Assembly: GCF_015207035.1 (NCBI RefSeq)
Contig: NZ_JADEXQ010000053.1
Span: forward strand, 1-43,075
Source of the DNA: Romeriopsis navalis LEGE 11480
GTDB taxonomy: Bacteria; Cyanobacteriota; Cyanobacteriia; Leptolyngbyales; Leptolyngbyaceae
DNA length: 43,075 nt
Direction: 5' to 3'
A program made the translations under genes and the position numbers. This document shows positions 27,838 through 37,292 of this stretch, one piece after another (position 1 is the first letter of the stretch; every line of letters starts with the position of its first letter). Under the pieces are notes generated by a model. It was not told where the DNA came from, ran no database searches, and worked only from the letters and a program-made list of their open reading frames with translations.

Positions 27838-30800
27838 ATGAATGGTCAGTTTATGGGCGGACTCGCTATGAAACATCGAGAAGGTACATTTAAAGGCTTT
27901 GGTGACTGTAATCTTTACTTTCAAAGCTGGTATCCCAAAACTCCTAGTCAGGCGATCGTTGCCTTAGTGCATGGTTTAGGGAGTCATAGTGGGGCACTGC
28001 GGAATGTGGTGGAATACCTGGTGCGCCAGGGGTATGAAGTCTATGCGATGGATTTGCGCGGCCACGGTCGCTCCATGGGACAACGGGGCCATATCAATTC
28101 ATGGCAAGAGTTTCGTGGCGATCTCCAAGCCTTTATTCAGCAAATTCGGGCCCAACATGCGCGCTGTCCTCTGATTCTGTGGGGTCATAGTATGGGGGGC
28201 ACGATCGCCTTGGACTATGCATTGCGATCGCCCGATGCGATCCAGGGCTTAATTGTCAGTGCCCCCGCCCTCGGACAAGTCAAAATCCCACTGCACAAAT
28301 TGTGGGTGGGGAAATTACTTTCAACCTTTTTGCCCCACTTCAGTCTCCCCGCCGGATTGAGTAAACAACTGGCGAAGCGCAGCCCTGCTGCTTGGGCGGC
28401 CTATCGACAGGACCCATTACGGCATGAATTGGGGACTGCGCGATTAGTCACAGAGTTTTTTCGCACGGTGAATTGGATTAATTACCATGCGGCGGAGTTG
28501 CGGGTGCCCTTGCTGATTCTGCATGGCACGGCGGATGGCGTCACGTCACCTAACAGTAGTCGGGCCTTTTTTCACCGCATCTTGTTCCCGGATAAACAGC
28601 ACTACGAATATCCTGGGGCGTATCATGATCTTGACCAGCTCACCCAGTTTAATGATGTTGAGGTCTGGCTTGATCAACATTTAGATAATGCGGAACGCTG
28701 TTCCCCCTATAGTGGCTGTTTGTTGGTGCATAAAACGGCACCACTGCACCCTGGCAATATTTTGGGCCACACTATTCCTGGCTTACTTGATCAAGCCTGT
28801 GCAGCGCATCCGAATGCCACAGCCTTCAATCAGTGGACCCGCGATGGCTGGCAAACCACCTCGAACCAAGCTCTCCAACAGCAAGTCGAGAATTTTGCCT
28901 TAGGTCTACAGCTCGCTTTAGATCGACAACTTGTTTTGGATCGACAACTTGTTTTGGATCGACAACCAAGTGACCGGGCAAATGGCGATCGCGTGGCTTT
29001 GTTAATGCGGTCGAATCTACACTTTGCCGTTGCTGATCTGGGTTGTTTGCTCGCGGGTTTTGTCGATGTCCCGATCGATTTAACGCAAACCTTAGAAAAT
29101 ATCGTCTTTGCCCTCCGTCATAGTGGAGCGAAAGCCCTGGTCGTGACTGATTTGGGATTGCTGCAAGCGCTCCAAGCCTACCTCGTTGATTTACCGGCTT
29201 TAACTTTGATTGTGGTGGCGCAGACCGATCAAGATTGGCCCCAGGCAAAGGTTGCGATTGACTTGCCGACGACGCTCCAGGTGACTTCGCTGGAAGCACT
29301 ACAGCAGCGGGGCGCAGCCGCTCGAACACCGCAGCGATTAGTCCAACTGCGCCAAGCGATTCAGCCGACCGATCACGCAACGATTATCTATATTCCCGGT
29401 GTCACCGGCGAACTGGCCGGGGTGATGCTTAGCCATGAAAATATTACGGGTAATGCGCTAGCGACCTTTGGGGAGTTGCCCAACCTCGGCTGGGGCAATG
29501 CGGAAACCGCTTTAGCATTTCTGCCGCTCACCCATATCTTTGCGCGTCATTTACTCTATGGTCATATCTACTATGGTCACAGCGTTTACTTTTCGAGTCC
29601 GCGCTATGTGATGAAACATCTCCAATCACTGCAACCGACGGTGTTGGCCACGGTCCCACTGCTGTTGGAGAAAATCTATGATCAAATTCGCGATCGGGGA
29701 CACAAACTCAAGTCGCGCCGCGCCCGAATTAGTTTTGCCTGGGCTTTAGACATTGCGCAACGCCATCAACTCGGACAACCGATCGATGACTTTTATGCGG
29801 TCTTACTCAAAGCTGCCGATCGTTTAGTGCTACACCATTGGCGAGCTGTCTTTGGGGGACGGATGAAATATCTGCTCTGTGGTGGGGCGGCGCTCAGAGC
29901 AGATGTGGCGAATGTCTTAACCGCTGCTGGCATCCCGATTTTGCAAGGCTATGGCTTAACTCAAAGTGCGGGTGTTGTTTGTTTTAATCGACCCACGGCC
30001 AACCGATCGGGCAGTGTTGGGACGCCGATTCCGGGGGTGGAACTGGCAATTGCCCCGGATCAAGAAATCCTGATCCGAGGGCCTTATATCAGTTCTGGCT
30101 ATTACCGCGATCCTACTGCGACGGCGCAACTGATTGATCAACAAGGTTGGCTGCATACGGGTGACTTTGGCAGCATGACGATCGATGGACATCTGCAAAT
30201 TACCGGCCTGAAGAAGTCGCTGTTTAAGTTATCGACGGGTAAATATATTGCCCCCGAACCGATCGAAGCCAGGCTGCTAGCCTCTCCCTTAATTGCGCGG
30301 GTGATGCTGGTGGGAGCCGATCGCAAATTCTGCGGCGCATTGATTTTCCCACACTTACCCGTCTTACGCGCCCGAGCGAAAGCCTTGTCACTGTCGCTTG
30401 CTGACGCCGACTTGCTCCAACATCCCTGCATTTTAGCCTGGTACCAGATTGCTGTTGATCAAGCCAATTGCCATCTGCCTTACTGGTCGGTGGTCAAACG
30501 GTTTCGGCTGATCAATATGGAACTGTCGATCGACAATGGTTTGCTCAATCACCAACAGGAAATTCATCGCTACCGCATTCACCAACGCTTCTCGTTTGAG
30601 ATCGCACTACTCTACGGCGATGAGTTACCCCTCCTACCTTCGGTTAAACCGGATCGAGTTAAACCGGAGCCGGATCAGCTCGATTCGGCCTCATCCAGCC
30701 AACCTCGTCTAACTAGCCCAACTGAGCAACCCACACAGATCGCGGACATTGACCCAGCAATTCCCCCTCTGCATTGTCCGCTACCACCAGCGGCGAGTTG

Positions 30801-30843
30801 CCCGGTTGAAGCCCAGTCACTACATCCACGCTTTACCGCGTAA
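27838..30843 (+). CDS. Monoacylglycerol-lipase-like hydrolase fused to a long-chain acyl-CoA-synthetase-like domain
   Basis: A 1001-residue two-domain protein. Residues about 11-285 are an alpha/beta hydrolase of the monoacylglycerol lipase type: LVHGLGSHSG, RGHGRSMGQRGHI, the nucleophile in LWGHSMGGT (Ser118), LILHGTADGVTSP and YPGAYHDL. Residues about 315-930 resemble long-chain acyl-CoA synthetases: FLPLTHIFARHLLYG, LLCGGAALRADV, LQGYGLTQSAG, GWLHTGDFG and KLSTGKYIAPEPIE. The fusion would release a fatty acid and pass it to activation. The ligase motifs are altered: the phosphate loop reads YIPGVTGELAG, without the usual Thr/Ser and Lys; the Glu after GYGLT is Gln; and the C-terminal catalytic Lys region is not recognisable. 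Ligase activity is therefore doubtful. The in-frame ATG at 27868 (MKHREGTFKGFG) fits related hydrolases better as the start. Confidence 0.88.
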   Translation: MNGQFMGGLAMKHREGTFKGFGDCNLYFQSWYPKTPSQAIVALVHGLGSHSGALRNVVEYLVRQGYEVYAMDLRGHGRSMGQRGHINSWQEFRGDLQAFIQQIRAQHARCPLILWGHSMGGTIALDYALRSPDAIQGLIVSAPALGQVKIPLHKLWVGKLLSTFLPHFSLPAGLSKQLAKRSPAAWAAYRQDPLRHELGTARLVTEFFRTVNWINYHAAELRVPLLILHGTADGVTSPNSSRAFFHRILFPDKQHYEYPGAYHDLDQLTQFNDVEVWLDQHLDNAERCSPYSGCLLVHKTAPLHPGNILGHTIPGLLDQACAAHPNATAFNQWTRDGWQTTSNQALQQQVENFALGLQLALDRQLVLDRQLVLDRQPSDRANGDRVALLMRSNLHFAVADLGCLLAGFVDVPIDLTQTLENIVFALRHSGAKALVVTDLGLLQALQAYLVDLPALTLIVVAQTDQDWPQAKVAIDLPTTLQVTSLEALQQRGAAARTPQRLVQLRQAIQPTDHATIIYIPGVTGELAGVMLSHENITGNALATFGELPNLGWGNAETALAFLPLTHIFARHLLYGHIYYGHSVYFSSPRYVMKHLQSLQPTVLATVPLLLEKIYDQIRDRGHKLKSRRARISFAWALDIAQRHQLGQPIDDFYAVLLKAADRLVLHHWRAVFGGRMKYLLCGGAALRADVANVLTAAGIPILQGYGLTQSAGVVCFNRPTANRSGSVGTPIPGVELAIAPDQEILIRGPYISSGYYRDPTATAQLIDQQGWLHTGDFGSMTIDGHLQITGLKKSLFKLSTGKYIAPEPIEARLLASPLIARVMLVGADRKFCGALIFPHLPVLRARAKALSLSLADADLLQHPCILAWYQIAVDQANCHLPYWSVVKRFRLINMELSIDNGLLNHQQEIHRYRIHQRFSFEIALLYGDELPLLPSVKPDRVKPEPDQLDSASSSQPRLTSPTEQPTQIADIDPAIPPLHCPLPPAASCPVEAQSLHPRFTA
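28921..28966 (+). repeat. 18-bp tandem repeat in the lipase/ligase fusion gene
   Basis: GATCGACAACTTGTTTTG is repeated at 28921 and 28939 with a partial third copy at 28957, encoding DRQLVL repeats. It is in frame, near the start of the ligase-like domain. Two copies are identical, so the duplication is recent. Confidence 0.9.
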
Positions 30844-30897
30844 GGCCAAGTTGTCCCCTCAGTTATGCCTTCAAAATTAGTGCAGGGGAAGTCGTTC

Positions 30898-30934
30898 AAA
30901 GTCCCCCTTTTGAAGGGGGATTTAGGGGGATCAC
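30898..30934. repeat. 37-bp repeat, intergenic copy
   Basis: Identical over 37 bases to 32420-32456 inside the next gene. It includes the hairpin CCCCCTT-TTG-AAGGGGG. It lies in the 163-bp gap before the dehydrogenase/hydratase gene and may act as a transcript-processing or stabilising hairpin. Confidence 0.9.
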
Positions 30935-31006
30935 CAACTGTAGCAATCACAAGTTGATTTGGGATTAGTCATCCCTCAGTCATTATCCAAGCAAGGAGTT
31001 AGCATC

Positions 31007-33526
31007 ATGTTAAAAGCCTTTAGAACCGTTGCTGTCCTCGGTGCCGGTATCATGGGGAGCCAAATTGCCGCTCACCTTGCCAATGCTGGGCTATCGGTGC
31101 ACCTGCTCGATCGGGCCCATGATGGCGAATCGAAAAATCATCACGTCGAAGCTGCCTTTAAACGGGCGATGAAACTTTCACCCCCGATTTTCTTCACAGA
31201 CAAAATTGCTCGGCGCATTACTCTGGGTAACTTCGATCAGCATTTCGATCGGCTGAAGCAAGCGGATTGGGTGATTGAAGTCATCATTGAAGACTTAGCG
31301 ATTAAGCAAGAGATGATGGCCCGGATTGAAGCCGTTGTGCGTCCGAATACGATTGTCTCGACGAATACGAGTGGGTTGCCCGTAGCGGCGATTGCGGCGG
31401 GACGATCGGAGGCTTTCCGGCGGCATTTCCTCGGTACCCATTTCTTTAATCCACCCCGCTATCTCAAACTGCTGGAACTGATTCCCACGGAGGATACCGC
31501 ACCATCAACGCTGGCGCGGGTGCAGGAATTTGGGGCAATGCGTTTAGGCAAAGGCATTGTGATTGCGAAGGATACACCGAACTTTGTGGCAAACCGGATT
31601 GGTGTCTATGCGACGATGCTTGGCCTACAGGCATTGGAGCAAGGCTATACAATTGCTGAGATTGATACCCTCACAGGGATATTGGTAGGCCGCCCCAAAT
31701 CGGCGACCTTCCGCACGGCGGATCTCGTTGGTTTGGATACGCTGAGCGCGGTCTTGCAGCATCTGCACGGCGCGATTCCGCAGGATGAAAGTCCGGCGAT
31801 GTTTGCGATTCCGGATGTGCTACGGAACTTAGTCGCGGCGGGGGCTTTAGGAGCGAAAACTAAGCGCGGATTTTACCAAAAAGTCAAAGGCGAGATTTTA
31901 GCGCTCGATCCGAGGACGATGGAATATGCCTTGCCCGCACCGATCGACTTTGGCCCAGCGATGGCGATCGCGAAGGTGAAAGATCTCGGCGATCGGTTGC
32001 GCTTACTTTATAAGGATCAGGGCCGGGCCGGGCAATTTTTCCGCAACTATATGCGCCGGTTATTTGCCTATTGCATTAATCGCATTCCCGAAATTACTGA
32101 CGACTTTAGCGAAATCGATCGGGCTTTGCGTTGGGGCTTTGGCTGGCAAATGGGACCATTTGCGATTTGGGATCGGCTGGGATTCTCGATGGTGCTGGCG
32201 GATATGGAATCCCATAGCATGACGATTCCGGCTTGGGTGATGAAGATGAAAGAGGAAGGTGCAGCGGGTTTCTATACCAGTGCTGCGGTTCCTACGCGTG
32301 AGATGTCGGTGCATGGAGAAATGGACGGTGGTCGATCTGCAAGAAGCAATGTTGTGATCCCCCCCAGCCCCCCTAACTCCTACGGAGAGGCTACGCCAAC
32401 AAACGGGGGGAGTGATGATAAAGTCCCCCTTTTGAAGGGGGATTTAGGGGGATCACAACCCGAATATCCCAACGACCATATCGATCTAGACGCGATCAAA
32501 GCTGATCACCATAATCTCCTCTGGCGCAACGCCGAAGCGGCTCTGCTAGATCTAGGTGATGGCGTAGCGCTGTATGAATTCCGCTCTAAGGGAAATACCC
32601 TCAGCATGAAAGTGCTGGAGGGACTAGACGAAGTGATGACCTTAGTCGAGCGGGGGGAATTCCGGGGTTTAGTCATTGGTAATGGTCGTGATCACTTCTG
32701 CGGTGGGGCCAATCTGATGGAAATGGCCGCCATGGCCCAAGCGGATATGGCAAGATTCGGCAATGTCTCCGCCACAGAATTAGTCGAACAATCGGCGATC
32801 AGTGGGCTAATTGAAAAATTCCAAGGCTTACTCAACCGGATTTATTACTCGCCCTATCCGGTCGTGGCAGCGGTGCAAGGTCGCTCGCTGGGGGGTGGGG
32901 CCGAACTTGTCCTGGCTTGCCCGAAGATTGTGGCGGCAGCCGAAAGCTACATTGGCCTGGTTGAAGTCAGTGTGGGGTTGATTCCGGGCGCTGGGGGGAT
33001 TATGCGCATGGTTAGCCGTGCGACCCACCGAGCCGCGACTGAAACACCGGCCCATATCTTACCGTTCCTGAAAACTGTGTTTGAGACGATCGCCACTGCG
33101 AAAGTTTCCAGCAGCGCCTTGGAAGCGCAGGAACTGGGTTTTCTGCCGGACGATGCCGTAATCATCATGGATGGTGATCGCCGCCTTGATGTGGCGAAAG
33201 CGGAAGTGCTACGGCTGGACCAAATCGGCTACGTGCCACCCGCCGCACACAACACGTTTATGGTGCTGGGTAAACCGGGCCGCGCCATGTTTGACTATGC
33301 CGCCTATGTGTTTGAGCAGGGGGGATTTGCGACGGCTTATGATCGCTTCCTTGCCGGTAAGTTGGCCTATGTGATGACGGGTGGCGACCTCACGGCACCG
33401 ACGATCGTTCCCGAAAGCTATCTGCTGGATCTCGAAAAGCAGACCTTTGTGCCATTGCTCCAGCAGCCGAAGACCCAGGCCCGCATTGAATCGATGCTAA
33501 CTCGGAAAAAGCCACTGCGGAATTAG
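31007..33526 (+). CDS. fadN: 3-hydroxyacyl-CoA dehydrogenase/enoyl-CoA hydratase fusion (FadN-like)
   Basis: An 839-residue bifunctional beta-oxidation enzyme: hydration of enoyl-CoA and NAD-dependent oxidation of 3-hydroxyacyl-CoA. The dehydrogenase comes first: VAVLGAGIMGSQIAAHLANAG (in part), STNTSGLPV, GTHFFNPPRYLKLLELIP and KDTPNFVANRIG, with two C-terminal HAD lobes to about residue 430. The hydratase is at about 505-700: FCGGANLMEM (oxyanion hole), GGGAELVLACP and GLVEVSVGLIPGAGG, with both catalytic Glu kept. This domain order is that of Bacillus FadN, the reverse of E. coli FadB. The ATG at 31007 has AAGGAG 8 bases upstream; the frame is open 48 bases earlier without a site. Residues about 449-485, between the domains, are encoded by an inserted palindromic repeat. 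The thiolase gene starts 78 bases downstream. Confidence 0.92.
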   Translation: MLKAFRTVAVLGAGIMGSQIAAHLANAGLSVHLLDRAHDGESKNHHVEAAFKRAMKLSPPIFFTDKIARRITLGNFDQHFDRLKQADWVIEVIIEDLAIKQEMMARIEAVVRPNTIVSTNTSGLPVAAIAAGRSEAFRRHFLGTHFFNPPRYLKLLELIPTEDTAPSTLARVQEFGAMRLGKGIVIAKDTPNFVANRIGVYATMLGLQALEQGYTIAEIDTLTGILVGRPKSATFRTADLVGLDTLSAVLQHLHGAIPQDESPAMFAIPDVLRNLVAAGALGAKTKRGFYQKVKGEILALDPRTMEYALPAPIDFGPAMAIAKVKDLGDRLRLLYKDQGRAGQFFRNYMRRLFAYCINRIPEITDDFSEIDRALRWGFGWQMGPFAIWDRLGFSMVLADMESHSMTIPAWVMKMKEEGAAGFYTSAAVPTREMSVHGEMDGGRSARSNVVIPPSPPNSYGEATPTNGGSDDKVPLLKGDLGGSQPEYPNDHIDLDAIKADHHNLLWRNAEAALLDLGDGVALYEFRSKGNTLSMKVLEGLDEVMTLVERGEFRGLVIGNGRDHFCGGANLMEMAAMAQADMARFGNVSATELVEQSAISGLIEKFQGLLNRIYYSPYPVVAAVQGRSLGGGAELVLACPKIVAAAESYIGLVEVSVGLIPGAGGIMRMVSRATHRAATETPAHILPFLKTVFETIATAKVSSSALEAQELGFLPDDAVIIMDGDRRLDVAKAEVLRLDQIGYVPPAAHNTFMVLGKPGRAMFDYAAYVFEQGGFATAYDRFLAGKLAYVMTGGDLTAPTIVPESYLLDLEKQTFVPLLQQPKTQARIESMLTRKKPLRN
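32351..32459. mobile_element. MITE-like palindromic element inserted in frame
   Basis: A 109-bp element with perfect 13-bp terminal inverted repeats, GTTGTGATCCCCC (32351-32363) and GGGGGATCACAAC (32447-32459). It is C-rich on the left and G-rich on the right, which is odd for coding DNA. It adds a Pro/Gly/Asn-rich peptide (VVIPPSPPNS...LLKGDLGGSQ) to the linker between dehydrogenase and hydratase domains without breaking the frame. No target duplication is visible. Its right part recurs at 30898-30934. Confidence 0.85.
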
Positions 33527-33604
33527 CGGGCGATAAATTACACCAACCGCGATCGCGATTCATTAATTCCGCGCCTTCATTGCGCCACGACAGGAGACCA
33601 CATT

Positions 33605-34792
33605 ATGACTATGCAAACCGCCTACATTATCAGCACTGTCCGCACCCCGATTGGCAAAGCGCCACGGGGGACACTGCGCCAGATGCGACCCGATGACCTC
33701 GGCGCGATCGCCGTCAAAGGGGCGATTGATCGGGTGCCGAACCTTGATCCGGCGATAATTGATGATTTGATCATCGGCTGTGCCATCCCGGAAGCGGAGC
33801 AAGGCTTTAATCTGGGGCGGGTGATTGGCCAACGCGCGGGTTTACCCAGCTCCGTGGCGGGTATGACCGTCAATCGCTTTTGTTCTTCGGGCTTACAAAC
33901 TATCGCCATGGCAACCCAAGCGATCGTCACCGGCCAAGCCGAGATGATCATCGCGGGGGGAGCCGAATCGATGAGCCTGATCCCGATGGGTGGTCATCTA
34001 ATTGCGCCGAACCCTGAACTGCTCGCTGAGGCTCCGCAAGCCTATTGCACAATGGGCTTGACGGCTGAGAATGTGGCAGCGGCGTATCATATTTCCCGTG
34101 AAGATCAAGATGCCTTTGCCCTACGATCGCATCAGCGGGCGCTCACCGCGATCCAGGCGGGTCGGTTTGAGTCAGAGATTGTGCCAGTCCCGATTCAATC
34201 GACTAACTATGTCGATGGTGCCTTAGAAACGCACCAACAACTTTTCCAACAGGACGAAGGGCCGCGCCCTGATACCAGCCTCGAAGCCCTAGCCAAATTA
34301 CCAGCGGTGTTCCGCATTGGAGGGAGTGTCACGGCGGGCAATTCCTCTCAAATGTCCGATGGCGCAGCCGCAACGATCGTCGTCAGTGAAGCGATGCTCA
34401 ATCAACTCGGGGTGGCACCGATGGGCCGTTTAATCGGCTTTGCGGTGGCGGGTGTGCCCCCGGAAATTATGGGCATTGGGCCAGCGGCGGCAGTGCCGAA
34501 GGTGCTGGCTCAGGTGGGGTTGACGCTGCATGATATTGGCTTAATCGAATTGAATGAAGCCTTTGCCTCGCAGTCTTTAGCAGTGATTCGGAAGCTCGGA
34601 CTCGACGAAGATATTGTGAATGTGAATGGCGGGGCGATCGCCCTGGGGCATCCGCTCGGCTGTACAGGCGCAAGGATGACGGCGACGTTGCTCGCCGAAA
34701 TGCAGCGGCGGGGCATTCGCTATGGGCTAATTACGATGTGCGTCGGCGGTGGCATGGGTGCGGCCGGGGTGATTGAGAACTTAATGGTCTGA
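33605..34792 (+). CDS. fadA: Thiolase (acetyl-CoA C-acyltransferase)
   Basis: A 395-residue thiolase that cleaves 3-ketoacyl-CoA with CoA to release acetyl-CoA, the last beta-oxidation step. Catalytic residues are all visible: the nucleophile Cys93 in NRFCSSGLQ, His349 in [16 protein letters not shown] and Cys379 in CVGGGMG, plus the ELNEAFA motif at about 315-321. The length and the start [14 protein letters not shown] are standard. AGGAG lies 8 bases before the ATG. A biosynthetic acetyl-CoA acetyltransferase (PHB-type) has the same motifs, but the neighbours, a dehydrogenase/hydratase before it and an acyl-CoA dehydrogenase after it, argue for degradation. Confidence 0.95.
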
Positions 34793-34846
34793 GGTTGATG
34801 GTGTGAGGTTGGGGCAATTTGGCGTGAAGCGATCGGAGGTGTGGTT

Positions 34847-37171
34847 ATGATTTCCCATTTTTTGGGGTTATTTGTTGTTGCAATATTGGGATTGCTGATT
34901 CTGATGTTTAATCCGTTGGCACTGCGGCGGATGCTTGTGACAACGCCAATTATGCAAGTGATGCAGGCAATGCAGATATTGCCGCAGATTTCGGCGACGG
35001 AGCAGGCAGCGATCGAAGCTGGTTCGGTGTGGGTCGAGCGCGAATTCTTTGGGGGAAATCCGGATTATGGGTGGATTCAGCAGCAGCCCTATCCGACAGT
35101 CACACCTGAGTTGCAAGCACTGTTGGATGGACCGATCGAGCACATCTGTCGTATGGCGACGGACTGGGAAATCTATCAGCAACAGGATTTACCCGCAGCC
35201 GTCTGGGATCAGCTGAAGTCATCGGGCTTACTCGGCATGATGATTCCAACGGAATATGGGGGATTGGGACTGTCGAATTTTGAGTACAGTACGATCATGG
35301 CCAAGTTGGCCTCACGTTCCTTTATCTACACCGCCACGGTTGGTGTGACGAATTCCCTCGGCCCGGCCAAGCTGTTGCTGCACTATGGTACAGCGGCGCA
35401 AAAAGCCCATTATTTGCCTCAGCTGGCACGGGGGGAAATCATTCCCTGCTTTGCGCTGACGGAGCCATCTGCCGGTTCTGATGCGGCGAGTATTGCGGCT
35501 CAGGGGCATGTTTTCCGAGGCGCGGACGATCAACTCTATATCCGGCTGAATTTTAGTAAGCGCTACATTACCTTGGGGACGATCGCCAATCTGATTGGGT
35601 TAGCCTTTAAGCTCTACGATCCGGAATATCTGCTGGGCCAAACCGAAGATTTGGGGATTACCTGTGCGCTGGTGCCGACTGACTTGCCGGGTGTGAGCAT
35701 TACCCAACGTCACGATCCGATGGGGGTGCCGTTCTACAACTCCCCGATCGTTGGTCAGGATGTCGTGATTCGGGCGGACAATATCATTGGGGGCATCGAG
35801 CAAGCCGGTCAGGGGTGGCCCATGCTGATGCAGGCATTAGCCGCCGGGCGCGGTATTAGCTTCCCTGCTAGCTGTACGGGCGTAGCGAAATTTGCAGCCC
35901 GTGTGGTGGGGGACTATACGGCAGTGCGCCGCCAGTTTGGCCTCGCGATCGGCAAATTTGAGGGGGTGGAGGAACCACTGGCCCGGATTGGTGGTTTGAC
36001 CTATCTGCTCGAAGCGGCGCGTACCTACACCTGTAGTGCTGTGGACCAAGGTGAGAAACCGGCAGTGGTAGCGGCGATCGCCAAGTACCAATTCACCGAA
36101 TTAACGCGCCAAATTGTGATGGATGGCATGGATGTATTGGGTGGTGCAGGCATTTGCCGGGGACCCCGCAACCTACTGTCTAATCTCTACACCGCAATGC
36201 CGATTCCAATTACGGTCGAAGGGTCGAATATCATCACGCGCACGATGATGATTTTCGGCCAAGGCGTGATGCGGGCGCATCCCTATCTCTACGATGAGGT
36301 GATGGCGTTGCAAAATCACGATGCTGTGGCCTTCGATCGTCTACTGTGGCAGCATATCCGGTTTATCTTGAGCAATCGTTTGCGGATGGTCCGTTTGGGC
36401 TTAACGCGGGGCTACGGGAGCAAGGCCCCGGAGCATGATGCCACGCGGCGCTACTACCAAAAACTCACCTGGGCTTCGAGCAACTTTGCCTGTCTGACGG
36501 ATCTGGTGCTGCTCCGCTTTGGGGGTGGCTTGAAGCGGCAGGAAAAAATTACGGGTCGCTTAGCGGATGTCGTTTCTTGGCTGTATTTAGGCACGGCGAC
36601 ATTGCGACGATTTGAAGCCGAAGGTCGGAATCCCGATGATTTACCGTTTGTCCATTGGGCCTTGCAATACAGCTTAAGTCAGGTGCAACAGGCATTTGAA
36701 GGCACATTAGCGAATCTACCACTGCCAGCGATGCTGCGGCTGCCCGTGCTGTGGATCTGGCGGATGAACCCGATCGCCCAGATGCCGAGTGATCACCTCG
36801 GTGGCATGATTGCCAAGCAACTGCAAACACCAGGGGCGATGCGCGATCGGCTGACGGCGAATATGCATATTCCGGCTGAGCCAGAAGAAGCCTTGGGGCG
36901 TTTGGAAAATGCCTTCCAGTTAAGCCATCAAGCGGCACCGCTACTGAAAAAGATCAAACTGGCAATGCGCGCGGGCCAACTGCCCAAGGAACGACCCGAA
37001 CGCATGGCACATACTGCATTAGAACATGATGTGATTACTCGGGATGAGTTTGAGTTGATTCAAATGGCCCAGGAAGCCAGAACTGATGCTGTGCAGGTTG
37101 ATGCCTTCTTCCTGCCGGAATACTTAGAAGTAGACGATCTACCCAGCGACGTGGCTGACGTATTGGCATAA
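34847..37171 (+). CDS. fadE: Acyl-CoA dehydrogenase, FadE type
   Basis: A 774-residue FAD enzyme that makes trans-2-enoyl-CoA from acyl-CoA, the first beta-oxidation step. It is the long proteobacterial FadE form: an N-terminal hydrophobic segment (residues about 3-20), the acyl-CoA dehydrogenase core with GMMIPTEYGGLGLSNFEYS, CFALTEPSAGSDAAS and ALAAGRGISFPA, then VEGSNIITRTMMIFGQG with the likely catalytic Glu, and a C-terminal DUF1974-like region of ~250 residues (LYLGTATLRRFEAEGRNPDDLP). I chose the ATG at 34847 because GGAGG at 34835-34839 has the right 7-base spacing; the GTG at 34841 would leave one base. It starts 54 bases after the thiolase and ends the operon. Electrons would go to an electron-transfer flavoprotein not encoded here. 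Confidence 0.95.
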   Translation: MISHFLGLFVVAILGLLILMFNPLALRRMLVTTPIMQVMQAMQILPQISATEQAAIEAGSVWVEREFFGGNPDYGWIQQQPYPTVTPELQALLDGPIEHICRMATDWEIYQQQDLPAAVWDQLKSSGLLGMMIPTEYGGLGLSNFEYSTIMAKLASRSFIYTATVGVTNSLGPAKLLLHYGTAAQKAHYLPQLARGEIIPCFALTEPSAGSDAASIAAQGHVFRGADDQLYIRLNFSKRYITLGTIANLIGLAFKLYDPEYLLGQTEDLGITCALVPTDLPGVSITQRHDPMGVPFYNSPIVGQDVVIRADNIIGGIEQAGQGWPMLMQALAAGRGISFPASCTGVAKFAARVVGDYTAVRRQFGLAIGKFEGVEEPLARIGGLTYLLEAARTYTCSAVDQGEKPAVVAAIAKYQFTELTRQIVMDGMDVLGGAGICRGPRNLLSNLYTAMPIPITVEGSNIITRTMMIFGQGVMRAHPYLYDEVMALQNHDAVAFDRLLWQHIRFILSNRLRMVRLGLTRGYGSKAPEHDATRRYYQKLTWASSNFACLTDLVLLRFGGGLKRQEKITGRLADVVSWLYLGTATLRRFEAEGRNPDDLPFVHWALQYSLSQVQQAFEGTLANLPLPAMLRLPVLWIWRMNPIAQMPSDHLGGMIAKQLQTPGAMRDRLTANMHIPAEPEEALGRLENAFQLSHQAAPLLKKIKLAMRAGQLPKERPERMAHTALEHDVITRDEFELIQMAQEARTDAVQVDAFFLPEYLEVDDLPSDVADVLA

Positions 37172-37263: not shown

Positions 37264-37292
37264 GCCCCGACTTTTTAGTCGTGGGCTTTTTT
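37264..37292 (+). terminator. Terminator of the lipid-degradation operon
   Basis: GCCCCGACT (37264-37272) pairs with AGTCGTGGGC (37277-37286, one bulged T) across a TTTT loop, followed by TTTTTT. It lies about 90 bases after the FadE stop and before the convergent ABC exporter gene. Confidence 0.85.

What the first reader, a model, noticed from the sequence alone, without database searches (positions are those of the whole stretch)
27838..37171. Complete fatty-acid beta-oxidation operon in a cyanobacterium
Four same-strand genes cover lipid hydrolysis and activation (fusion), enoyl-CoA hydration and 3-hydroxyacyl oxidation, thiolysis and acyl-CoA dehydrogenation, ending at one terminator. Catalytic residues are intact in the last three proteins. 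Cyanobacteria are generally held to lack beta-oxidation. HIP1 sites lie inside the cluster (for example near 31963, 33705, 34637 and 36068), so it looks long resident, not freshly acquired or contaminating. The gene order after the fusion (HAD/ECH, thiolase, dehydrogenase) is that of Bacillus fadN-fadA-fadE, but the dehydrogenase is of the proteobacterial FadE type. This looks like a mosaic fatty-acid salvage or membrane-turnover system.
Basis: partly seen in the sequence, partly recalled or inferred. Interest (0 to 1): 0.88.

Follow-up and report, generated by a model that had tools for sequence, protein, structure and literature searches.

The report
Cyanobacterial fat-burning operon lacking its electron carrier
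Many cyanobacteria, a group often said to be unable to burn fatty acids, carry one conserved set of genes for exactly that, and they seem to do it without the electron-carrier protein that this chemistry is usually thought to need.

Summary
Window 27838-37171 encodes a hydrolase/acyl-CoA synthetase fusion, a FadN-type 3-hydroxyacyl-CoA dehydrogenase/enoyl-CoA hydratase, a thiolase and a FadE-type acyl-CoA dehydrogenase on one strand, with intact catalytic residues in the last three. It is neither contamination nor unique. The FadE-specific domain occurs in 74 of 388 genomes drawn from the class, 19 of 217 of one further family and one more genome: 94 carriers. Synthetase-FadN-FadA-FadE is complete in 77 of 94; 15 others are cut by a contig end, one is decayed, one has a lone FadE. 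Cyanobacterial copies form one clade; nearest are MAGs labelled Rhodothermales, Balneolales and Bacteroidetes, so the 'mosaic' was probably not made here.

The unexpected part: none of 76 carriers tested has an electron-transfer flavoprotein (ETF), and only 2 of 76 have a full isocitrate lyase. FadE has an N-terminal hydrophobic segment and Tyr where ETF-dependent relatives have Trp/Phe. Most likely the operon oxidises the cell's own membrane fatty acids and FadE passes electrons straight to the quinone pool. How FadE is re-oxidised is open even in E. coli. Beta-oxidation genes in Chlorogloeopsis fritschii are already mentioned in print.

The parts
27838..30843 (+). Fused monoacylglycerol-lipase-like alpha/beta hydrolase (residues about 36-265) and long-chain acyl-CoA synthetase (about 382-928)
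   Evidence: fusion also in G193 and G498; P-loop degenerate but A10 lysine in 58 of 59 aligned rows
31007..33526 (+). FadN-type 3-hydroxyacyl-CoA dehydrogenase then enoyl-CoA hydratase (the ORF opens at TTG 30959, likely start ATG 31007)
   Evidence: H161, E173, E649, E669 (numbered from 30959) conserved in 59 of 59 aligned rows
32351..32459 (+). In-frame palindromic insertion in the FadN linker between the two enzyme domains, 24-nt arms 83% complementary
   Evidence: the window's FadN ORF is 855 aa, median 795 aa over 62 carrier FadN ORFs not open at a contig end
33605..34792 (+). FadA-type thiolase
   Evidence: C93, H349, C379 in 63 of 63 aligned rows
34841..37171 (+). FadE-type acyl-CoA dehydrogenase with ACDH_C C-terminal domain
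   Evidence: catalytic Glu460 in 72 of 72 aligned rows and aligned with the EGTN glutamate of ACAD9 and VLCAD
34841..34915 (+). N-terminal hydrophobic segment of FadE, putative membrane anchor (approximate limits)
   Evidence: Kyte-Doolittle 19-residue mean of at least 1.6 near the N terminus in 71 of 71 full-length carrier FadE and in E. coli FadE
35558..35572 (+). Flavin motif K-R-Y-I-T of FadE (residues 240-244); the motif of acyl-CoA dehydrogenases is K-x-W/F-I-T
   Evidence: motif named in PMC6017585 (passages)
37268..37281 (+). Weak terminator-like hairpin after FadE; number of such sites not above chance

Best explanation
The operon is a working beta-oxidation module for the cell's own acyl chains. 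The hydrolase frees fatty acids from glycerolipids (inferred); the synthetase makes acyl-CoA (inferred, weaker because of its degenerate P-loop); FadE makes trans-2-enoyl-CoA; FadN hydrates it and oxidises the 3-hydroxyacyl-CoA with NAD; the thiolase releases acetyl-CoA. Because the genome has no detectable ETF, FadE, held at the membrane by its N-terminal segment, most likely hands its electrons directly to the membrane (plasto)quinone pool shared by respiration and photosynthesis. Because a full isocitrate lyase is missing from nearly all carriers, acetyl-CoA goes to the TCA reactions and back into lipid synthesis, not to net growth on fat. Shown: gene content, order, conserved catalytic residues, distribution, absence of ETF in 76 carriers and of a full isocitrate lyase in 74. 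Inferred: activities, direction, membrane attachment, electron route, physiological role.
For: All four steps encoded; catalytic residues of FadE, FadN and thiolase conserved. Synthetase-FadN-FadA-FadE in one order and strand in 60 of 76 carriers, 15 of the other 16 cut by a contig end, plus 17 of 18 in family f7, while no flanking gene other than the hydrolase is shared by more than 7 of 76 loci. PF01012 (ETF) in 0 of 76 carriers, positive in the two class controls G177 and G332; PF00766 in 0 of 8 carrier handles and in 4 of 4 Rhodothermales/Balneolales/Bacteroidetes carriers. FadE is the only PF00441 match in 17 of 76 carriers, 11 of these at least 90% complete. FadE without ETF also in Pseudomonadota: 14 of 66 FadE+ genomes of 2.8 Mb or more have no PF01012 match. 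N-terminal hydrophobic segment in 71 of 71. KRYIT in 104 of 106 FadE rows. Independent expression evidence, if the genes are the same: beta-oxidation genes of C. fritschii are about 10-fold up after 48 h of far-red light (PMC6424891, passages).
Against: No biochemistry. The synthetase P-loop is degenerate in many copies (Lys at the usual place in 25 of 59), so activation is uncertain. A non-homologous electron carrier cannot be excluded; ETF-QO was not searched. Most other FadE hosts do have ETF: 51 of 66 Pseudomonadota above cut-off, 4 of 4 Rhodothermales/Balneolales/Bacteroidetes carriers and 4 of 4 FadE+ genomes of group f30; so FadE may use ETF there. E. coli has ETF homologues, though none is assigned to FadE (PMC9329746). 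FadE could pass electrons to oxygen. The AlphaFold model of FadE was too poor (pLDDT 60) to test a quinone site.
Confidence: 0.62

Rival explanations
1. FadE works as an acyl-CoA oxidase: electrons go to oxygen and H2O2 is made, which an oxygenic phototroph may tolerate.
For: No ETF in 76 carriers; E. coli FadE is reported as a source of H2O2 and its predicted structure resembles ACOX-1 (PMC11495604, passages); loss of the flavin Trp is one of three changes that made a dehydrogenase into an oxidase (PMC6017585, passages).
Against: The threonine whose replacement gave significant oxidase activity in that work is kept in 72 of 72 aligned carriers (T244); a conserved membrane segment would have no obvious purpose.
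Confidence: 0.15
2. Beta-oxidation with another, unrecognised soluble electron carrier in place of ETF (for example ferredoxin or a flavodoxin-like protein).
For: ETF families absent; cyanobacteria have many ferredoxins (recalled).
Against: [quoted passage not shown] A carrier encoded elsewhere is not excluded.
Confidence: 0.12
3. The enzymes serve a different end: chain shortening for lipid remodelling or natural products, PHA monomer supply, or reversed beta-oxidation.
For: Full isocitrate lyase in only 2 of 76 carriers; no hydrolase seen next to the operon in 23 of 60 complete loci; full degradation is not proven.
Against: Synthetase, and often a hydrolase, at the head of the operon and a FadE of degradative type; flanks hold no shared biosynthetic genes; the own genome's other ACAD lies elsewhere beside NRPS-like ORFs (C8).
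Confidence: 0.1
4. Contamination, or a chance acquisition with no function.
For: Patchy distribution; some copies decayed or lone (G1036; G625).
Against: Genome 99.5% complete, 0.19% contaminated; HIP1 sites inside; the same operon in named records Leptolyngbya sp. PCC 7375 and Adonisia turfae CCMR0081; one cyanobacterial clade; catalytic residues conserved.
Confidence: 0.01

Closest known systems
Beta-oxidation genes UYEDRAFT_05553 to 05556 of Chlorogloeopsis fritschii PCC 9212 (Ho and Bryant 2019, PMC6424891, passages read)
   Same: A cyanobacterium; [quoted passage not shown] about 10-fold up in far-red light, 15- to 70-fold in rfpBC mutants.
   Different: The passages do not name the four products or their order and 'acyl-CoA' does not occur in the main text; I could not match the locus tags to a carrier genome. 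That they are this operon is my inference.
Rhodothermales / Bacteroidetes MAG operon ACS-FadN-FadA-FadE (L015, L018); Balneolales L017 and Rhodothermales L016 without a synthetase hit
   Same: Same gene order and same FadE type; nearest relatives in the FadE and FadN trees.
   Different: Those four genomes have ETF alpha; the synthetase is not fused to a hydrolase in L015 and L018.
Bacillus fadN-fadA-fadE operon (gene names recalled; loci L019-L021)
   Same: Same order FadN-FadA-acyl-CoA dehydrogenase; same dehydrogenase-first FadN.
   Different: The Bacillaceae dehydrogenase matches only part of the window's FadE at 24-27% identity; Bacillus subtilis has ETF (control).
E. coli FadE (NC_000913, b0221)
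   Same: FadE-type (PF09317 control positive), N-terminal hydrophobic segments, KRYIT motif.
   Different: Other side of the FadE tree; no other fad gene lies beside fadE in the stretch seen, and ETF homologues exist (control).
ACAD9 / VLCAD (8phe, 3b96)
   Same: Best solved-structure matches; catalytic Glu aligned.
   Different: They have W in the flavin motif and their alignments end at residue 590-591, before most of ACDH_C; mitochondrial enzymes, VLCAD ETF-dependent (recalled).

Membership tests
FadE-type acyl-CoA dehydrogenase (ACDH_C) | ACDH_C domain after the ACAD core; score above NCBIfam NF007000 | tested here: met
   PF09317 321 bits; NF007000 981 bits, cut-off 600
FadE-type acyl-CoA dehydrogenase (ACDH_C) | Catalytic glutamate | tested here: met
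   E460, 72 of 72 aligned carriers, aligned with ACAD9/VLCAD
E. coli FadE proper (NF038187) | Score above the curated cut-off of 1300 | tested here: not met
   829 bits; so a FadE-type enzyme, not E. coli FadE itself
ETF-dependent acyl-CoA dehydrogenase system | ETF alpha/beta in the same genome | tested here: not met
   PF01012 0 of 76 carriers; PF00766 0 of 8 carrier handles
ETF-dependent acyl-CoA dehydrogenase system | K-x-W/F-I-T flavin motif | tested here: not met
   K-R-Y-I-T in the window and in 104 of 106 FadE rows
ETF-dependent acyl-CoA dehydrogenase system | ETF:quinone oxidoreductase in the same genome | not tested
Acyl-CoA oxidase | Loss of the active-site threonine that limits oxygen reactivity | tested here: not met
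   T244 kept in 72 of 72 aligned carriers
Acyl-CoA oxidase | H2O2 formation with acyl-CoA | not testable with these tools
   needs enzyme assay
FadN / FadB (NF052272 Staph_FadB) | Dehydrogenase domain before hydratase domain, catalytic residues | tested here: met
FadN / FadB (NF052272 Staph_FadB) | Score above cut-off 999 | tested here: not met
   613 bits; Cytobacillus FadN 583 bits is also below
Acetyl-CoA C-acyltransferase (thiolase) | Cys, His, Cys catalytic residues; above TIGR01930 | tested here: met
   457 bits, cut-off 241; 63 of 63 aligned rows
Long-chain acyl-CoA synthetase | AMP-binding fold with A10 lysine | tested here: met
   PF00501 178 bits; Lys in 58 of 59
Long-chain acyl-CoA synthetase | Canonical P-loop (motif recalled) with its lysine | tested here: not met
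   Ala in the window; Lys in 25 of 59 aligned rows
Growth on fatty acids (glyoxylate shunt) | Isocitrate lyase | tested here: not met
   full match in 2 of 76 carriers (G334, G432). The window's genome (26.5 bits, cut-off 26) and G619 have only partial matches of about 83 of 526 positions in short frames, which pass the cut-off formally; I read them as other members of the superfamily

The most novel reading that the evidence does not exclude
FadE-type acyl-CoA dehydrogenases as a family are ETF-independent, membrane-anchored enzymes that reduce quinone themselves, the ACDH_C domain and N-terminal helix forming the quinone contact. Cyanobacterial carriers, in 76 of which no ETF was found, are the natural proof, and there FadE injects electrons from membrane lipids straight into the plastoquinone pool of photosynthesis.
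Probability: 0.5. Interest if true: 0.85.

Novelty: new variant of a known kind. Interest (0 to 1): 0.72.

Why it matters
Metabolic engineering of cyanobacteria rests on the statement that they cannot degrade fatty acids by beta-oxidation; here the gene set is found in 94 genomes of 11 family codes and is complete in 77 of them. The second point reaches further: papers on E. coli say that it is not known how FadE is re-oxidised and whether an ETF serves it (PMC9329746, PMC11495604, passages). Organisms with FadE and no ETF, 17 of them with no other PF00441 match, make that question testable now, and suggest a direct entry of lipid electrons into the photosynthetic quinone pool.

Tried and rejected
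Contamination: rejected. PHA or other biosynthetic neighbours: none shared. The own genome's second acyl-CoA dehydrogenase as part of the pathway: it lies beside an AMP-ligase-like and very large NRPS-like ORFs (L054; types read from the translations, not from a family search). AlphaFold of FadE: mean pLDDT 60 with six sequences, core poorly built; no fold search was run on it. Promoter and terminator scans: not above chance. General paper searches gave mostly unrelated papers. PMC3369817 holds no mention of beta-oxidation. A paper cited by others for the absence of beta-oxidation (PMC8252387) is not held. Trees are quick ones with SH-aLRT support only and no AU test; two carriers with short FadE (G527, G565) and FadN of 600 aa or less were left out of them. 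FadN relatives were found with patterns taken from the window's own protein, so their sampling is biased. A first count of the KRYIT motif (102 of 106) used too narrow a stretch; the recount is 104 of 106.

Full report
What is there. Four + strand genes lie at window 27838-37171: a fusion of a lipase-like hydrolase and an acyl-CoA synthetase, a FadN-type two-domain enzyme, a thiolase and a FadE-type acyl-CoA dehydrogenase. Gaps are about 163 (to ATG 31007), 78 and 48 nt. Base composition is close to the surroundings (54.1% GC against 51.4% for the window), and 7 of the window's 21 HIP1 sites lie in the cluster; shuffles of the window gave a mean of 1.5 sites in all. The window's genome is 6.47 Mb in 251 contigs, 99.5% complete, 0.19% contaminated.

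How common it is. PF09317, the C-terminal domain that marks FadE, was found in 10 of 386 genomes drawn over the phylum: 6 of the window's class and 4 of another group, f30. In a draw of the class it was found in 74 of 388 genomes, 44 of 160 genera. The two rates differ because the draws differ, so neither is a census of cyanobacteria. Family f7, searched as 217 genomes, had 19, including one with stops (G1036). Distinct carriers: 74 + G211 + G334 + 18 = 94, in 11 family codes. Two are named records: contig lengths and positions show that G499 is Leptolyngbya sp. PCC 7375 and G617 Adonisia turfae CCMR0081.

Gene order. In the first 76 carriers, synthetase-FadN-FadA-FadE stand together in that order and on one strand in 60; 15 of the other 16 are cut by the contig end, and G625 has a lone, diverged FadE with 5.5 kb free upstream. 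In f7, 17 of 18 have hits to all four in order; the 18th, G1036, is decayed (FadA in three pieces, FadE truncated) with 0.6 kb left upstream on its contig. A hydrolase of the same kind stands upstream on the same strand in 35 of the 60 complete loci, 34 of them within 1.3 kb; in two more it lies elsewhere close by (G420, G478), and in 23 none was seen, some of these with little sequence upstream. In f7 it is upstream in 16 of 18. Hydrolase and synthetase are fused in 3 of 76 (window, G193, G498). No other gene is shared by more than 7 loci in the stretches fetched: the operon looks like a self-contained unit in many places.

Are the enzymes intact? Over carriers long enough to align: FadE Glu460 72 of 72; FadN dehydrogenase His161 and Glu173 and hydratase Glu649 and Glu669 59 of 59; thiolase Cys93, His349, Cys379 63 of 63; synthetase A10 Lys 58 of 59. 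The exception is the synthetase P-loop, whose lysine is present in only 25 of 59. This argues for constraint on the oxidation steps and leaves some doubt about activation.

Where it came from. In a tree of 106 FadE, all 74 cyanobacterial rows form one clade (SH-aLRT 100); three rows of MAGs labelled Rhodothermales, Balneolales and Bacteroidetes are next (99; joint branch 100), and 26 Pseudomonadota rows including E. coli lie on the other side. A mixture-model tree of 41 rows agrees. FadN gives the same picture: 59 cyanobacterial rows in one clade (100), four rows of those MAGs nearest (their own grouping is weak, 36), Bacillaceae, Burkholderiales and Armatimonadota among those outside. L015 and L018 show the full order ACS-FadN-FadA-FadE; L017 shows FadN-FadA-FadE without a synthetase hit, and L016 is a short contig with FadN, FadA and the start of FadE. 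So the combination of a Bacillus-like FadN-FadA pair with an ACDH_C-type FadE exists outside cyanobacteria; direction of transfer is not shown. Over all 14 labelled groups the FadE tree needs 21 label changes (least possible 13; shuffled mean 67), so cyanobacterial families are clustered but mixed; the window's FadE groups with G498 of another family (98), which shares the fusion.

The missing carrier. ETF (PF01012) is in 181 of 386 phylum genomes, but within the window's class only in G177 and G332, and these two have no PF00441 match. Of 76 carriers none has it; the two positive controls rang. By quality, one search counts 64 good genomes among the 79 searched; 61 of these are carriers. PF00766 agrees: 0 of 8 carrier handles (two of them the same strains as G499 and G617), 4 of 4 of the Rhodothermales/Balneolales/Bacteroidetes MAGs. 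Against a simple reading, the four FadE+ genomes of group f30 all have ETF. In Pseudomonadota 113 of 249 genomes have PF09317; of the 66 of these with at least 2.8 Mb, 51 have ETF above cut-off, one below it, and 14 none. Completeness was not told for these, so some absences may be gaps. Among the five genomes nearest E. coli in the FadE tree (G859, G675, G815, G836, G803), four have no match and one only a sub-cut-off match.

What FadE looks like. Nearest solved structures are ACAD9 and VLCAD, aligned up to residue 590-591; no solved protein among the 60 shown covers the rest of ACDH_C. All 71 full-length carrier FadE have an N-terminal hydrophobic stretch, as has E. coli FadE. Acyl-CoA dehydrogenases have a flavin motif K-x-W/F-I-T whose aromatic residue tunes transfer to ETF (PMC6017585, passages); ACAD9 and VLCAD show W there. 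FadE has K-R-Y-I-T in 104 of 106 rows, and the threonine whose replacement by glycine gave the engineered enzyme significant oxidase activity is kept in 72 of 72 aligned carriers. FadE of Pseudomonadota that have ETF share the Tyr, so the motif alone does not tell the acceptor. These facts fit a dehydrogenase that uses neither ETF nor, by design, oxygen; they do not prove a quinone site. The AlphaFold model was too poor to help.

Physiology. Isocitrate lyase is present as a full match in 2 of 76 carriers (G334, G432); the window's genome and G619 have only weak partial matches in short frames. Net growth on fat is therefore unlikely; turnover of membrane lipids for energy and acetyl units is the natural reading. 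Ho and Bryant report that beta-oxidation genes of C. fritschii with four consecutive locus tags rise about 10-fold after 48 h of far-red light and 15- to 70-fold in rfpBC mutants, and suggest membrane breakdown (PMC6424891, passages). A second study saw fatty-acid degradation genes rise in strain PCC 6912, but noted that a canonical pathway 'seems to be absent in cyanobacteria' (PMC10830646, passages). A MAG paper lists beta-oxidation among the capacities of Phormidium pseudopriestleyi (PMC8002359, passages). Others state that cyanobacteria lack it (PMC7379126, PMC6123915), have an incomplete one (PMC11546870), or, for Synechocystis, have no homologues although one report suggested some fatty-acid catabolism (PMC7133116) (passages).

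Verdict. Observation confirmed, interpretation partly supported. The operon is a widespread, conserved, little-noticed beta-oxidation unit of cyanobacteria. The strongest new point is that its FadE stands in genomes where no ETF was found. In the passages I read, the literature leaves open how FadE is re-oxidised (PMC9329746, PMC11495604).

Noticed in passing
window 32351-32459: A palindromic element with 24-nt inverted ends sits in frame inside FadN, in the linker between its two enzyme domains, adding residues without breaking the gene; it looks like an interspersed repeat.
   Followed up: partly
L051 13335-13883 (G193), and loci of G453, G468, G516: A gene of one family lies upstream of the hydrolase in 4 of 76 loci; in L051 it is an Lrp/AsnC-type regulator, a candidate regulator of the operon.
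   Followed up: partly
L147 4767-5270 and six other loci (cluster 4): A 23S rRNA intervening-sequence-type protein gene (Pfam checked for L147 only) lies antisense between FadA and FadE in 7 of 76 loci.
   Followed up: partly
synthetase part of 27838-30843: The ATP-binding P-loop is degenerate in more than half of the aligned cyanobacterial synthetases while the A10 lysine is kept; its activity deserves a test.
   Followed up: partly
L149 (G633), L122 (G594), L171 (G583), L256 (G1036): Split or decaying copies, or assembly errors: FadN in two frames in G594 and G633, FadA in two frames in G633, an in-frame stop in the hydrolase of G583, broken FadA and FadE in G1036.
   Followed up: no
G177, G332: The only two genomes of the class with ETF in the phylum draw have no PF00441 match at all; what their ETF does is unknown.
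   Followed up: no
FadN-FadA gap of G500, G519, G529, G567, G583: About 1 kb between the FadN and FadA matches, without a long ORF, in these genomes of the window's family.
   Followed up: no
L054 (G000:C8): The own genome's second acyl-CoA dehydrogenase stands before an AMP-ligase-like and very large NRPS-like ORFs, probably a natural-product cluster (read from translations only).
   Followed up: partly
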